Virus record (IMG/VR): IMGVR_UViG_3300020410_001297
Coordinates: 1 to 21,950 of that record
From: a virus
DNA length: 21,950 nt
Strand: one strand, 5' to 3'
The translations under genes and the position numbers were made by a program. Below the pieces are notes generated by a model that did not search any database, was not told the origin of the DNA, and saw only the letters and a program-made list of their open reading frames with translations. Each line of letters begins with the position of its first letter. Position 1 is the stretch's first letter. Below, in pieces: positions 14,646 to 21,217 of this stretch.

Positions 14646-15632
14646 ATGGATGCCCCGCGTTACCCCTACAAACCCATTTATAGCCTAAAGGCTCTATCTT
14701 TGGCGCTTGGGGAGCCCGTCGAACTGCTTAAGAGCTTGGCAAAGCGCAGTTCGAGCTTATACCGCCATGTCCCGCAAACAAAAAAAGATGGCAGCGTGCG
14801 TGACACCTACGATGCTCATCAACCACTGAAGGCGATCCAGCGCAAAATCGTTGATAAGTTTCTGGCTCGGGTTCGCTACCCAGACTACCTCCACGGGGGA
14901 ATCAAAGATCCGAGCTCCCCCAGGAGCATTTACTCGAATGCCCTGACGCACGGTAAAGCCAAAACCATCCTACTTCAGGACATCAAGGACTTCTTTCCGT
15001 CCATCCGCGTGCAGCATGTAGAGCATATTTTTACCGGACTATTCGGTTTTTCTGAGGAGGTTGCTCAACTGCTGGCGTTACTGACCACCCGCAACGGTGT
15101 CATTCCACAGGGCGCTAGCACCAGCGGGTATCTGGCCAACTTGGTGTTTTGGGATATCGAGCCTACTCTGGTCTCTCGTCTCAACTTGCGTGGACTCAAG
15201 TACTCCCGTTTTGCCGATGACATTACGATTTCCGCAATGATGCCTCTGGACGGTCTAGTGCTTACCGAATTGGTGGGGGCGGTAACGGTTATGCTTGCGA
15301 AGAAGGGTTGCCAACAGAAGCGTTCAAAGCTCCACGTGCGTAAACGGGGGCAAACGATACAGGCGAAAGCGGGCTTTGAGGCTCTTACAATCACCGGCCT
15401 CTCGGTCTTCAATGCGGCACCAAGCCTTACGAAGGCAGAGCGTAAGGCTATCCGCGCAGCGGTAAAACAAGTGGAAGATCAAGCGACCCAAGGCGGCAGT
15501 TGGGGGCAATTGGAACCAACGTTTCGCAGTGTAATGGGACGCGTGGGACGGCTCATTGCCTGCGGCCACCCAGATGGTGAACGTTACAAGCAGCGCCTTA
15601 AATCCGTACAGGAGCATTGCTACAAAAAGTAG
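14646..15632 (+). CDS. Retron-type reverse transcriptase
   Basis: A 328-residue RNA-directed DNA polymerase. ATG at 14646 follows AGATAGGA. Hallmarks seen: KKDGSVRDTYD with LKAIQRKI at about 46-68 (RT1); NALTH at 98-102, the retron NAxxH motif; QDIKDFFPSI at 111-120 with catalytic Asp112; IPQGASTSGYLANLVF at 153-168; FADD at 189-192, the active-site aspartates (YADD box with Phe); and ITG at 249-251, matching the VTG triplet of retron RTs that contacts the msr RNA. A basic C-terminal thumb follows. Length is that of a standalone retron RT, with no fused effector. It would extend cDNA on a structured RNA encoded upstream. The effector could be the 84-aa ORF upstream; the convergent gene downstream is transcribed separately. 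Confidence 0.88.
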   Translation: MDAPRYPYKPIYSLKALSLALGEPVELLKSLAKRSSSLYRHVPQTKKDGSVRDTYDAHQPLKAIQRKIVDKFLARVRYPDYLHGGIKDPSSPRSIYSNALTHGKAKTILLQDIKDFFPSIRVQHVEHIFTGLFGFSEEVAQLLALLTTRNGVIPQGASTSGYLANLVFWDIEPTLVSRLNLRGLKYSRFADDITISAMMPLDGLVLTELVGAVTVMLAKKGCQQKRSKLHVRKRGQTIQAKAGFEALTITGLSVFNAAPSLTKAERKAIRAAVKQVEDQATQGGSWGQLEPTFRSVMGRVGRLIACGHPDGERYKQRLKSVQEHCYKK

Positions 15633-15652: not shown

Positions 15653-16240
15653 TTACGGAATACCGAGGTCCTTGAACGAGGCCGGAGCTGAGGCCCGGTA
15701 TTTTTTAGACCTGCGTTTACTACCTGAACACACAGCCTGATCCCTGGATTTGAACTCACGCGATTTTGTAGCCAGCAGGAGCCGTTGCTCATGCAGCTCG
15801 CTGGACTCAATCCTGAGCCTATTCTGCATGTCAGCCAGAGCGGCCTCTCGCTCATCAAGTTGACGGGTTCGCACTCGAACCGCGGCTTCGGCCGCTGATA
15901 CAGCATCCCTCTCAGCGGATGCTGCAATACCCCGCAGCTCTCGCTCCCTGCGCCTGTAGGCGGCCCCAGTAGTGCGCTCGTAAATCTCGGCGGTTAGGTC
16001 CAGGGCGAGCAAATAGGTGATCAGGACAGTCAGCACCCACAGTGCCCAGAATCTGCCCAGCACGGCCATTACAATGCCGTCCGCTAGCCCAGATATCTGC
16101 GAATAGCCAATCGCTGCGAGTGACAGCAGCAGGACGGTTAGCGCTTGCCCATATTGATCAAATTCGACGAACCAGCGCCTGAGGCGTCGAGGGGGAGTCG
16201 CTGGCTCAGTCATAAACTGATACGAGAGCAATTTCTTCAT
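15653..16240 (-). CDS. Two-TM membrane protein with long coiled coil
   Basis: A 195-residue product. The ATG at 16240 overlaps the recombinase stop by four bases (ATGA), making it the third gene of the operon; a second ATG at 16213 is possible. After a basic N-terminus (PPRRLRRWF) come two hydrophobic segments, about 31-47 (GQALTVLLLSLAAIGYS) and 60-82 (WALWVLTVLITYLLAL). A charged, Ala/Glu/Arg-rich coiled coil (about 93-165) follows, then a basic, Ser-rich tail. This suggests an inner-membrane anchor with a cytoplasmic helical arm. I do not know the family. It converges with the retron RT; some retron effectors are two-TM proteins, but its coupling to the recombinase argues for a role there. 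Confidence 0.7.
   Translation of the reverse strand: MKKLLSYQFMTEPATPPRRLRRWFVEFDQYGQALTVLLLSLAAIGYSQISGLADGIVMAVLGRFWALWVLTVLITYLLALDLTAEIYERTTGAAYRRRERELRGIAASAERDAVSAAEAAVRVRTRQLDEREAALADMQNRLRIESSELHEQRLLLATKSREFKSRDQAVCSGSKRRSKKYRASAPASFKDLGIP
15659..15706 (+). terminator. Terminator of the reverse transcriptase gene
   Basis: AATACCG (15659-15665) and CGGTATT (15696-15702) pair around a loop that contains a smaller GGCC stem, and the right arm runs into six T (15701-15706). It starts 26 bp after the RT stop and lies inside the 3' end of the convergent 15653 gene. Confidence 0.6.
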
Positions 16241-17124
16241 CTGAGATATACCTCTGTAATTTCTGGCCTAAAGTGGCCCATCTCCTGCGAAACAACCCGC
16301 AGCGCCGCATCCCTCATGAGCCCTGAATTTTGCAGCTCGCGCATGCGGGACTGCGCGTATGTGTGTCTGACGCCATGGGCACCAGTTGACCACCCCAGGG
16401 CGCGAGTGGATGCCGAGCTGTATGACTGGCTCCAGGTGTGGCCACCGCCGATATCGTATCGCTGTGCGTAGTGAACCCCTCGATCAGTCACGCTTATCGG
16501 GGTCTGTAGCCGGCGGGCCTCGAGCTTCTCAGCTAGGCCTTGCGGAAGTCGGATCTCTCGCGTGAGCCCCCCCTTGCCCGTGACGGTGTACGGCACACCT
16601 GGCTCTCGACCGGAAAATTTTTCAGGTAGGCTCGGCCGTGGATCTGGCTGTCGCTCGGCTATCGGCCTCAGGGTGAATAACTCATGCGCGCGCAGGCCTG
16701 CTGCGTGTGCGAGCTGCGTCGATAGCGAGTTCCGCACCTGCTGGGCCTGAGCGACTAGCTCCACCTGGGCGCGTGTGTAAGCCCGCGACCCTTGGGCCTG
16801 ATCTAGCTCCGACTTGATGACAGGCAGCCGCTCGCTAGGCTGCAGTGCGCCAGTGGTGCGCAGAAAAATTTGCGCCGCCTGGCGATCCAGGTCGAGAGTT
16901 TTTTGGCCAACGATTTGAGCCCGAGTTTCCAGGTAGGTGATAACCTGGTCACGGGTCATCGCATACAACCCACCCACTATGCGCTCTGCGCGCGCGTAGT
17001 CGGCCGCCCTGACGAGGGCATCACGATAGCCCCTCTGAGTGCCGACGCTGCGTAGCGCGCCGGCACGTTGAACGCGAGCGATGGCCTTAGTGGCCTGAGT
17101 TGAAGACTTCGCGAATTTAGCCAC
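16237..17124 (-). CDS. Second tyrosine recombinase
   Basis: A 295-residue recombinase, unlike the integrase at 11043. It overlaps the upstream HTH-like gene by 8 nt and the downstream membrane-protein gene by 4 nt. Catalytic residues: Arg145 (AAGLRAHELF), Lys184 (VTGKGGLTREI), His250 and Arg253 (HGVRHTYAQSR), His284 (MGHFRPEI) and Tyr293 (EVYLR). The protein ends two residues after the nucleophilic Tyr, so it lacks the C-terminal helix by which most integrases contact their neighbours in the synapse. The N-terminal 130 residues are helical, Ala/Arg-rich and would bind core DNA. It may recombine element sites (resolution, inversion) rather than integrate; a hairpin-rich region lies directly upstream of its operon. 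Confidence 0.82.
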   Translation of the reverse strand: MAKFAKSSTQATKAIARVQRAGALRSVGTQRGYRDALVRAADYARAERIVGGLYAMTRDQVITYLETRAQIVGQKTLDLDRQAAQIFLRTTGALQPSERLPVIKSELDQAQGSRAYTRAQVELVAQAQQVRNSLSTQLAHAAGLRAHELFTLRPIAERQPDPRPSLPEKFSGREPGVPYTVTGKGGLTREIRLPQGLAEKLEARRLQTPISVTDRGVHYAQRYDIGGGHTWSQSYSSASTRALGWSTGAHGVRHTYAQSRMRELQNSGLMRDAALRVVSQEMGHFRPEITEVYLR

Positions 17125-17356
17125 CTGCGCGCCCCCTCAGCCAGCGTGAAACCGTGCTGTGCGTGACGCGTATGCGGCGCTCAGATGCAAGCCAGCGCTG
17201 CAGTTCCGCTGCGGTTGCTCCCGCTCGGTGCAGCTGCAGCAATTCGCCAGCTAAGCGGTCAAGGCGTGAAGTTCGGTAACTTTTTTTCCTGCGGACCTGC
17301 GCCTCAGCGCGCAGCCGTGAGAGTGTGACTTTGGGGTTGAATTCGTCGGTAAGCAT
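17117..17356 (-). CDS. Small HTH-like protein, first gene of recombinase operon
   Basis: A 79-residue basic protein (MLTDEFNPKVTLSRLRAEAQ). ATG at 17356; the leader shows only a weak ribosome site. Residues about 28-75 (TSRLDRLAGELLQLHRAGATAAELQRWLASERRIRVTHSTVSRWLR, quoted in part) contain two helices followed by a recognition-helix-like VTHSTVSRWL, close to the helix-turn-helix of DNA-binding cofactors and recombination directionality factors. Its 3' end overlaps the recombinase gene by 8 nt, so the two are coupled. Probably a regulator or DNA-binding partner of the recombinase. Exact family not recognised. Confidence 0.68.
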   Translation of the reverse strand: MLTDEFNPKVTLSRLRAEAQVRRKKSYRTSRLDRLAGELLQLHRAGATAAELQRWLASERRIRVTHSTVSRWLRGRAGG

Positions 17357-18137
17357 TTAGTTTTCCCATGGGTTTGCCATGAAAAAACGTTACGAGATCA
17401 CCGATGCGTGCGCTACCAAATCGGGGTGTAAAAACGCCTGTAAGAATGACTGATCAACAAGTTGATTCAGCGGTTTCCCTATTCGCCCCTGTTTGCACAA
17501 TTGTGCTGGCTCGGACTGTTCACGCCAATAAATTCCCAGTTTTGATGGTAGCGGTCGCGTCAATTTGGATGCGGTATCGCCGGGTATCTGACTGGGCAGT
17601 GCAGCTGAGCAAAAATTAAATTTGCTCGGCCTGTTCATCATCAGGCTGAATTGCAGGCTGATGGTGATCCTCGGTTTTTCGTGGCGGTGCACGCGCGAAA
17701 ATTAGCTCGCGTTTTGGTACAGGCACAGGATAGCGCGCTGTGTTACTGCGCGCTATCGGCGTTTGAGTGTGTGCGTGGGTTTGTGTGCGTGATAAGCGCA
17801 GAGGCTAGACAGCACGGCTGTGTCAGGCGGGTTTTTGAGCCTGACACAGCCGTGCTACGCACGGAAGCGCGACGTAGTCGCGCTGGGTTGTGCGAGTCGT
17901 ACTCGCACAGCACGTGGTTGGGTCATCCACGTGCGCAAGAAGCGCAAATCCAGTTGTTAGGGGGGTGTTGACACAAAGTCCGTTGCTGCAGAGTAGGGCT
18001 GTCTTGGGAATGGGGCATGTGCTGCAGGGTGCGTATAGGCATCACCTGCAGCACCAAACATCTCGAGACGGATGTTCTCCTGCTGTGTATGAAAATACGC
18101 ATGTTTAACATTTGCGCAACTCGAATGGGGGGTAGAA
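17357..18137. other. Gene-poor 780-bp region rich in inverted repeats
   Basis: No convincing gene: short ORFs in both directions lack ribosome sites and run across hairpins. Contents: a near-palindrome CTGATCAAC/GTTGATTCAG at 17450-17470, a possible operator for the leftward operon; GAGCAAA/TTTGCTC at 17607-17627; a direct repeat CAGGCTGA near 17641-17662; the five-hairpin array described separately; and GTGCTGCAGG/CCTGCAGCAC at 18019-18054. The region separates the leftward recombinase operon from rightward genes, so it must hold both promoters. Confidence 0.6.
17729..17934. repeat. Array of five consecutive perfect inverted repeats
   Basis: Five perfect stems within 206 bp: GATAGCGCGC/GCGCGCTATC (17729-17757, 10 bp); an 18-bp stem beginning AGCACGGCTG with partner 17839-17856 (17811-17856, 10-nt loop); AGCGCGAC/GTCGCGCT (17866-17884, GTA loop); TGTGCGAGT/ACTCGCACA (17889-17909, CGT loop); GCACGTGG/CCACGTGC (17910-17934, 9-nt loop). 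The stems differ in sequence, so they are not copies of one repeat. A direct repeat GTGTGCGTG lies in the gap between the first two. Candidate roles include a structured RNA, a transfer or single-strand origin, or recombination sites for the adjacent recombinase. Confidence 0.8.
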
Positions 18138-20035: not shown

Positions 20036-20137
20036 GTTGCTGCGTGGTCTCAGCTCATTTGCAAAAGTTACACCGGGTTCGGTGGTGACGTGTTTTGGTT
20101 GACGGTAGCGTGGAGATTCACACCCACATGAGACTGA

Positions 20138-21067
20138 ATGATGACGCTAAGTACCGAAATCCGAGATCGCATTTACACTGCTGCAGACGAGCTGTACGAG
20201 CAGGGCGGAAAGGAGTCTTTTCCGACAGTTGATGCAGTAAGGAAGGCTGCACGTGTGAGTATGAATGATTGCTCAACTGGAATGAAGGATTGGCGGAGAG
20301 CCCAGACTGTTCGCGCTGCGCCTCTGTCCGTGCAGGTGCCGGAAGCTGTCCAACTGATGAGTGGGCAAGCTCTGGCCCAGCTATGGAATCATGCTCAAGA
20401 GCTTGCGAACTCATCTTTACGGGCAGCCGAGGCTGCATGGGAGGGGGAGCGCGGCGAGCTGGAGGTGATGAGGTCTGAGTTGGCAACGGCTTACGAGCTA
20501 CAGGCCGGCGAGTTGGAGTCGTCGCTGGCCGGGCTCGAGTCCGCAAAGGAAGTGGAGCGAGCGCAGGCCCAATTTGTTGAGAACATGGAAGCAGCCTTAG
20601 CGTCGGCTAATGAGGCTGCCGTAGACGCTGAGCAAAAAGCCGCGGAATCTAAACGCCTGGCACGGGAGCTTCGTGCCGAACTGGATCGGGCTCACACAAA
20701 CGCTGACCTTCTGCGCGAGGAAAGGGATCGGGCGGCTAAGCTCGTCAGGGAGGCGGATGAATCAGCGAAGGCTCAGGAAAAAACGCTTGCCGAGCTACGT
20801 ATAGCCATGGCTGCATCTGATCGCGCAACAGCGTTGGCAGAACAAAGAGCCGAGGAAGTCGAACGTCGTGCACTGGAGCTACGAACCGAGCTGGACCGTG
20901 CCCATCTTGATGCAGACAGAATCCGCCAGGAAAGAGATCATGCGGTCTCGTTGGTCAAAGCAGCGGAAGAGGCGAGGGATGTCGCGCGTCAAGAGCTGGC
21001 CTCAGTGCATGAGGAAATCGTATTCCTGCGCGCAGAAGCTAGGGCGCCGGAAACAATTGATTCGTAA
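20138..21067 (+). CDS. KfrA-like DNA-binding protein with long coiled coil
   Basis: A 309-residue product; ATG at 20138 (a second ATG follows at 20141) with only a weak ribosome site. Residues about 8-65 (EIRDRIYTAADELYEQGGKE, SFPTVDAVRKAARVSMN) match the N-terminal DNA-binding domain of KfrA-type plasmid proteins. Residues about 85-300 form an almost continuous Ala/Glu/Arg coiled coil. It contains a visible internal duplication: ELRAELDRAHTNADLLREER at about 177 and ELRTELDRAHLDADRIRQER at about 247, exactly 70 residues (10 heptads) apart. KfrA proteins are plasmid-borne autoregulators linked to stable maintenance. Its position next to hsdM suggests it may also regulate the restriction system. 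Confidence 0.82.
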   Translation: MMTLSTEIRDRIYTAADELYEQGGKESFPTVDAVRKAARVSMNDCSTGMKDWRRAQTVRAAPLSVQVPEAVQLMSGQALAQLWNHAQELANSSLRAAEAAWEGERGELEVMRSELATAYELQAGELESSLAGLESAKEVERAQAQFVENMEAALASANEAAVDAEQKAAESKRLARELRAELDRAHTNADLLREERDRAAKLVREADESAKAQEKTLAELRIAMAASDRATALAEQRAEEVERRALELRTELDRAHLDADRIRQERDHAVSLVKAAEEARDVARQELASVHEEIVFLRAEARAPETIDS

Positions 21068-21217
21068 GGGATCGCTCGCCCTTCCATCAATGCTGCGGTT
21101 ACCTCGAGCAGGGATGCTCCTCAAACCCTTCATTGGGCGCTCTACAGTGCTATTTCTACCATTCGCAAAACTCAGCAGGTAAGCTGCCTCCAGAAGAATA
21201 TTTTCAGGAGCAGTATC

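What the first reader, a model, noticed from the sequence alone, without database searches (positions are those of the whole stretch)
17729..17934. Five back-to-back perfect inverted repeats in a gene-free stretch
Five perfect stems (8-18 bp) with short loops fit in 206 bp, a density far above chance, and their sequences differ from one another. They lie next to the recombinase operon and between divergent genes. An attC-like recombination substrate, a transfer or single-strand origin, or a structured RNA could each explain them.
Basis: seen in the sequence. Interest (0 to 1): 0.72.

Follow-up and report, generated by a model that had tools for sequence, protein, structure and literature searches.

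The report
Recombinase with DNA hairpin and RNA
The cluster of DNA hairpins is real and marks the border of a widespread plasmid and genomic-island module in which a site-specific recombinase is paired with a conserved DNA hairpin and a previously uncatalogued, knotted non-coding RNA; what the RNA does is unknown.

Summary
The five perfect stems are present (shuffles: mean 0.05, maximum 1) but are not one kind of thing. The 18-bp stem (17811-17856) belongs to a hairpin, "B", found 510-770 nt (two outliers further) upstream of the same tyrosine recombinase in about 55 gammaproteobacterial plasmids and islands. B has a conserved CGCTATGT/ACATAGCG core and outer arms that change sequence while staying complementary; departures are mismatches rather than G-T pairs, which points to DNA pairing. 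B sits where unrelated DNA is joined: window and its nearest relative are about 93% identical across B and its distal hairpins, then diverge sharply at B's recombinase-side foot. The three small stems are part of that flank; such flanks fold well in many lineages. The 17729 stem is not conserved in that relative.
Between B and the recombinase lies a conserved pseudoknotted RNA (17439-17532, minus; 16 of 17 pairs with two-sided changes, plus a supported pseudoknot) with no Rfam family. Every RNA found in 695 genomes (20 genomes) lies beside this recombinase. Best reading: a site-specific recombination and maintenance module, B being the DNA site and the RNA a regulator. The RNA and the repeated hairpin are shown; the mechanism is inferred. 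Not oriT; attC-like only by analogy.

The parts
17811..17856 (.). Hairpin B: 18-bp perfect arms, core GGCTGTGT/ACACAGCC; homologue of CGCTATGT..ACATAGCG hairpins upstream of the recombinase in relatives
   Evidence: compensatory G-C to A-T change in L129
17866..17934 (.). Three small perfect hairpins (17866-17884, 17889-17909, 17910-17934) in the distal flank; hairpin-rich distal flanks recur in other lineages with unrelated sequence
17729..17757 (.). 10-bp stem in the spacer between B and the RNA; not conserved in the nearest relative, so probably incidental or an operator
18019..18054 (.). Further 10-bp hairpin of the same distal flank (outside the reported range), kept in L129 with one change
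17439..17532 (-). Conserved pseudoknotted RNA domain ('block A'): P1 GGY..RCC, pseudoknot GUCC/GGGC, variable P2, P3, P4, 3' end UUCUUACA
   Evidence: covariance model R1, 74 bits, E 4e-14; covariation on 71 relatives, pseudoknot; no Rfam match
17533..17728 (-). Spacer/leader between B and block A, inferred upstream part of the RNA (RNA-like stems shown only for the Pseudomonas group)
   Evidence: 5' end and promoter not located
17117..17356 (-). Short 79-aa HTH-like ORF, first gene of the operon
   Evidence: weak HTH matches; homologues in L003-L005 and others
16237..17124 (-). Tyrosine recombinase, 295 aa, catalytic R145 K184 H250 R253 H284 Y293 conserved; Xer/IntI-like fold
15653..16240 (-). 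Membrane/coiled-coil protein, third gene of the operon in plasmid-type copies
   Evidence: ORF; same position in L003-L005, L012

Best explanation
The hairpins are the border zone of a compact site-specific recombination module: hairpin-rich flank, hairpin B, spacer, pseudoknotted RNA, short HTH-like ORF, tyrosine recombinase, often followed by a membrane coiled-coil protein. Shown: B, the RNA and the recombinase occur together as one unit; B's arms are kept complementary; B lies at junctions between unrelated DNA; the RNA is a covarying pseudoknotted structure. Inferred: B, extruded as a hairpin or cruciform, is the site where the recombinase (or a partner) acts, one site per plasmid or excised circle, most likely to resolve multimers or otherwise maintain the element, and the RNA controls the operon or the reaction, comparable in logic to ColE1 cer with its Rcd RNA. 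The window copy belongs to an integrative, plasmid-like element that also carries an integrase, RepA, a retron-type reverse transcriptase and KfrA.
For: One B hairpin per recombinase copy, about 55 loci, same side and similar distance. Outer six positions of B: 276/300 Watson-Crick versus 166 when arms are swapped between loci; 1 G-T versus 23 mismatches. Alignment breakpoints fall at B: 12 pairs within 8 bp of the distal foot and 2 independent pairs (window/L129, L015/L043) within 5 bp of the proximal foot. RNA: 93.9% of cells paired, 16/17 pairs with two-sided changes, score 0.64 versus 0.18 shuffled and below 0.09 for slid controls; pseudoknot 98% paired. In 398 Pseudomonadaceae and 297 Pseudoalteromonas-family genomes the RNA occurs in 9 and 11 genomes, every time beside the recombinase. 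In five loci the RNA lies downstream of the recombinase. Small non-mobilizable plasmids dominate.
Against: No recombination at B is observed directly; no resolved dimers, no integration products. Breakpoints at B could reflect replication slippage or homologous exchange at a border of any conserved module; most Alteromonadales and Klebsiella breakpoints lie 50-75 bp outside B. B was not found by pattern in about 20 loci that have the recombinase, and some arms are broken in very close relatives. A promoter between B and the RNA is not better than chance. Two plasmid records (Klebsiella, Vibrio) carry the module in two or three copies, so multimers persist at least sometimes.
Confidence: 0.45

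Rival explanations
1. B and the RNA are both cis-regulatory: the RNA is a 5' leader controlling translation of the short ORF and recombinase, B a regulatory or insulating hairpin, and the recombinase acts at an unrelated site.
For: In most loci the RNA ends 10-20 nt before the start codon of the short ORF, on the same strand.
Against: In L064, L068, L074, L076 and L085 the RNA lies downstream of the recombinase with no common gene behind it. B stays with the far flank rather than with the RNA and operon in window/L129. B departs from pairing by mismatches, not G-T.
Confidence: 0.25
2. B is an attC-like folded single-strand substrate, so the module is an integron-like capture system with the recombinase's own neighbourhood as the platform.
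For: B is a hairpin with variable inner part and conserved box; crossover-like junction at the hairpin foot; Foldseek's first hit is integron integrase IntI4 on attC.
Against: Only one B per locus, no cassette array; attC end boxes absent; bulges sit on either strand; VIA-align ties XerA, XerH, IntI and lambda Int; junctions at the recombinase 3' end occur equally at other backbone genes.
Confidence: 0.12
3. The hairpins are passive: inverted repeats that grow and stay perfect by template switching at a module border, without a function for recombination.
For: Perfect Watson-Crick arms without G-T are what palindrome correction gives; distal hairpins are unrelated between lineages; no match for the small stems outside one relative.
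Against: The CGCTATGT core and 35-36 nt core length are conserved across distant hosts, and the two-sided change in L129 keeps pairing at 93% identity.
Confidence: 0.15

Closest known systems
ColE1 cer site with Rcd RNA (plasmid multimer resolution; from general knowledge)
   Same: Small non-mobilizable plasmids, one recombination site per plasmid, tyrosine recombinase, an RNA next to the site
   Different: Own plasmid-borne recombinase instead of host XerCD; RNA is a different, pseudoknotted, widely conserved family; site is a hairpin with variable arms; module also on chromosomal islands
Integron attC/IntI (PDB 2a3v)
   Same: Tyrosine recombinase fold, hairpin with conserved boxes and variable terminal part
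   Different: No RYYYAAC/GTTRRRY end boxes, no cassette array, no consistent extrahelical bases, extra RNA
XerH/difH and archaeal XerA (single-recombinase Xer systems)
   Same: Single compact tyrosine recombinase, palindromic site, similar Z-scores
   Different: B has about 35-nt core-to-core length and variable complementary arms; RNA and accessory ORFs
Gamma-mobile-trio (GMT) recombinase GmtY islands
   Same: Gammaproteobacterial islands with tyrosine recombinase and cargo
   Different: Only a chance-level match to the GmtY model (E 0.1); different gene set
IS110 bridge RNA systems (from general knowledge)
   Same: Recombinase gene accompanied by a conserved structured RNA in an adjacent non-coding stretch
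   Different: Different recombinase class; no guide-like loops were tested or seen

Membership tests
Integron attC site | Inverse and core boxes RYYYAAC / GTTRRRY at the hairpin base | tested here: not met
   B bases are variable GC-rich arms plus CGCTATGT/ACATAGCG
Integron attC site | Strand-specific extrahelical bases | tested here: not met
   Bulges 3'>5' in 19, symmetric in 18, 5'>3' in 13 of 50; none in the window copy
Integron attC site | Arrays of cassettes each ending in attC | tested here: not met
   One B per locus; no further recombinase-end copies
Conjugative oriT | Relaxase or mobilizable context | tested here: not met
   145 of 159 related plasmids typed non-mobilizable; no relaxase among the window genes scanned
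Known Rfam RNA family | Score above gathering threshold | tested here: not met
   No match on block A in the window or in 12 relatives
Structured RNA (new family) | Covariation above shuffled and slid controls | tested here: met
Tyrosine recombinase | R-K-H-R-H-Y catalytic residues and fold | tested here: met
   Alignment, AlphaFold2 pLDDT 93.7 and fold matches
Plasmid multimer-resolution system | Recombination between two copies of the site converts dimers to monomers | not testable with these tools
   No experimental data; one site per plasmid is compatible
Xer dif site | Two 11-bp arms around a 6-8 bp centre | tested here: inconclusive
   B cores are 35-36 nt end to end in 39 of 50 and 27-28 in 6; crossover point unknown

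The most novel reading that the evidence does not exclude
The RNA is a working part of the recombination reaction: a tyrosine recombinase whose choice or timing of recombination at the DNA hairpin B is set by its own pseudoknotted RNA.
Probability: 0.12. Interest if true: 0.92.

Novelty: new variant of a known kind. Interest (0 to 1): 0.64.

Why it matters
A tyrosine recombinase that travels with its own conserved structured RNA and a DNA hairpin across many gammaproteobacterial hosts is, as far as these searches reach, undescribed. If the RNA controls recombination, it would add RNA to a recombinase class thought to need only DNA and protein; even as a regulator it gives a new RNA family with a clear assay. 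The module is common on small Klebsiella plasmids, where spacers of CRISPR loci on large conjugative plasmids match exactly B and the short ORF, so it also matters for plasmid competition.

Tried and rejected
Integron-like cargo capture at the recombinase 3' end: breakpoints in the last codons looked specific, but the same occurs at the HTH and integrase genes of these islands and no second copies exist. attC membership: see tests. Promoter between B and RNA: looked convincing by eye, but consensus scores equal shuffles (zero hits in the window). Exact 18-mer of the stem in viral contigs: four unrelated contigs without hairpins. Sequence search of solved structures with the recombinase: only TAL-repeat noise. 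B as an element on plasmids without the recombinase: the only two such records among those listed were CRISPR spacers. Literature: five searches found no paper on this module; closed journals were not covered.

Full report
OBSERVATION. The five stems are exact. In dinucleotide shuffles of the same 206 bp the mean is 0.047 stems of at least 8 bp and the maximum 1 in 3000, and no other 206-bp stretch of the record has more than 2. The 481-nt surroundings fold at z about -9 on either strand. The record is an IMG/VR fragment: phage tail and lysin genes on the left, an IS3-family insertion, then a plasmid-like integrative element with an integrase, RepA_C, a retron-type reverse transcriptase, the recombinase operon, the hairpins and KfrA.

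THE OPERON. Facing away from the hairpins on the minus strand lie a 79-aa HTH-like ORF (17117-17356), a 295-aa tyrosine recombinase (16237-17124) and a membrane coiled-coil protein (15653-16240). The same order occurs on small plasmids of Aeromonas and Klebsiella. A scan of one genome for each of 84,980 species kept 80 loci, most of them gammaproteobacterial, and the plasmid collection has 159 records, 145 typed non-mobilizable. The recombinase matches curated families only weakly, but all catalytic residues are conserved and its AlphaFold2 model (pLDDT 93.7) has the tyrosine-recombinase fold. Foldseek ranks integron integrase IntI4 first; a second aligner ties XerA, XerH, IntI and lambda Int, so no closer kinship is claimed.

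HAIRPIN B. In about 55 loci a single long hairpin with a CGCTATGT/ACATAGCG-type core lies mostly 510-770 nt upstream of the recombinase. The window's 18-bp stem is its homologue (GGCTGTGT/ACACAGCC). Using hairpins picked without looking at the outer arms, 276 of 300 outer cells are Watson-Crick, versus 166 when arms are swapped between loci; only 1 is G-T and 23 are mismatches, about 6 of them A-C, which would be wobble on the other strand. RNA stems in the same loci do show G-U pairs. I read B as paired at DNA level (inference). Pectobacterium plasmids with 92-97% identical recombinases have different but fully complementary outer arms. Single-sided broken pairs also occur in some close relatives.

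B AS A BORDER. The nearest relative, an unnamed Pseudomonadaceae genome (L129), matches the window with about 93% identity over 17811-18084 and 89% to 18655; from B's recombinase-side foot towards the recombinase the sequences align only poorly (the RNA is 74% alike), and the recombinases are 63% identical. B itself differs by a compensatory G-C to A-T change and one loop base. A second pair, L015/L043, also ends within 5 bp of that foot, and twelve pairs end within 8 bp of the other foot (pairs inside one clade are not independent). In Alteromonadales and Klebsiella the border is 50-75 bp further out. The 200 nt beyond B fold better than shuffles in many lineages (mean z -2.24, 45% below -2; controls -0.44 and -0.02), so the window's three small stems are one example of a recurring hairpin-rich flank. 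The stem at 17729 is missing in L129.

THE RNA. A block ending in TTCTTACA precedes the short ORF in nearly all loci. A covariance model from 14 sequences finds 71 copies in the 80 sources searched, on the recombinase strand, including the window at 17439-17532. On the 64 distinct rows 93.9% of pair cells are standard, 16 of 17 pairs have two-sided changes, and the covariation score is 0.64 against 0.18 for shuffles and at most 0.08 for slid structures; the alignment was fitted to the structure, which favours it somewhat. A pseudoknot GUCC/GGGC is 98% paired with compensatory GUCA/UGGC forms. No Rfam family matches. Further stems with G-U changes lie upstream in the Pseudomonas group. In five loci the RNA lies downstream of the recombinase with no shared gene behind it, so it is not simply a leader. 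In 398 Pseudomonadaceae genomes the RNA occurs in 9 and in 297 genomes of the Pseudoalteromonas family in 11, each time beside the recombinase; several recombinase-positive genomes without RNA have a broken or distant recombinase. The promoter and 5' end remain unknown: consensus scans are at chance level.

MECHANISM. Best supported: a site-specific recombination/maintenance module with B as the DNA site and the RNA as regulator. Co-occurrence, structure and border position are shown; action at B, multimer resolution and any RNA role are inferred. Rivals are cis-regulation only, an attC-like system, and passive palindromes. attC membership fails on three tested features although the working logic may be similar. 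oriT is not supported.

NOVELTY. Tyrosine recombinases and plasmid resolution sites are known kinds; the fixed pairing with a covarying RNA family and a variable-arm DNA hairpin was not found in the libraries or papers searched. Hence new variant of a known kind, with a small chance of something categorically new.

Noticed in passing
L133 4001-4033 and 4244-4277; L134 4001-4033 (IncFIB/IncHI1B Klebsiella plasmids): CRISPR spacers next to a cas6/helicase (type IV-A-like) locus match hairpin B (33 nt, 100%); in L133 a further spacer matches the end of the short ORF of small Klebsiella plasmids: large conjugative plasmids appear to target this module.
   Followed up: partly
window 14646-15632: Retron-type reverse transcriptase (PADLOC RT_VI, 2e-76) without a recognised msr; probably defence cargo.
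   Followed up: partly
L100 12360-12464, 29595-29697; L099: Plasmid pVaJ360 (56.6 kb) carries three copies of the module about 17 kb apart and Klebsiella pM911-1.3 two, as multimers or assembly multiples.
   Followed up: no
L031, L037, L044, L049, L050 around recombinase, HTH and integrase 3' ends: Cargo junctions in Alteromonadales islands fall within the last codons of backbone genes, changing their C-termini.
   Followed up: partly
window 20081-21152 versus L129: The kfrA segment is absent from the relative (about 1.07 kb replaced by 35 bp); the window's right end enters a gene 90% identical to the start of an ORF in L129 that looks like a type I restriction hsdM.
   Followed up: no
L034 4236-4451 (-): PAGEV RNA (Rfam RF03037) on the same Vibrio plasmid contig as a copy of the module.
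   Followed up: no
G568, G425, G679 (Pseudoalteromonas family): Genomes whose recombinase is a pseudogene or fragment also lack the RNA.
   Followed up: no
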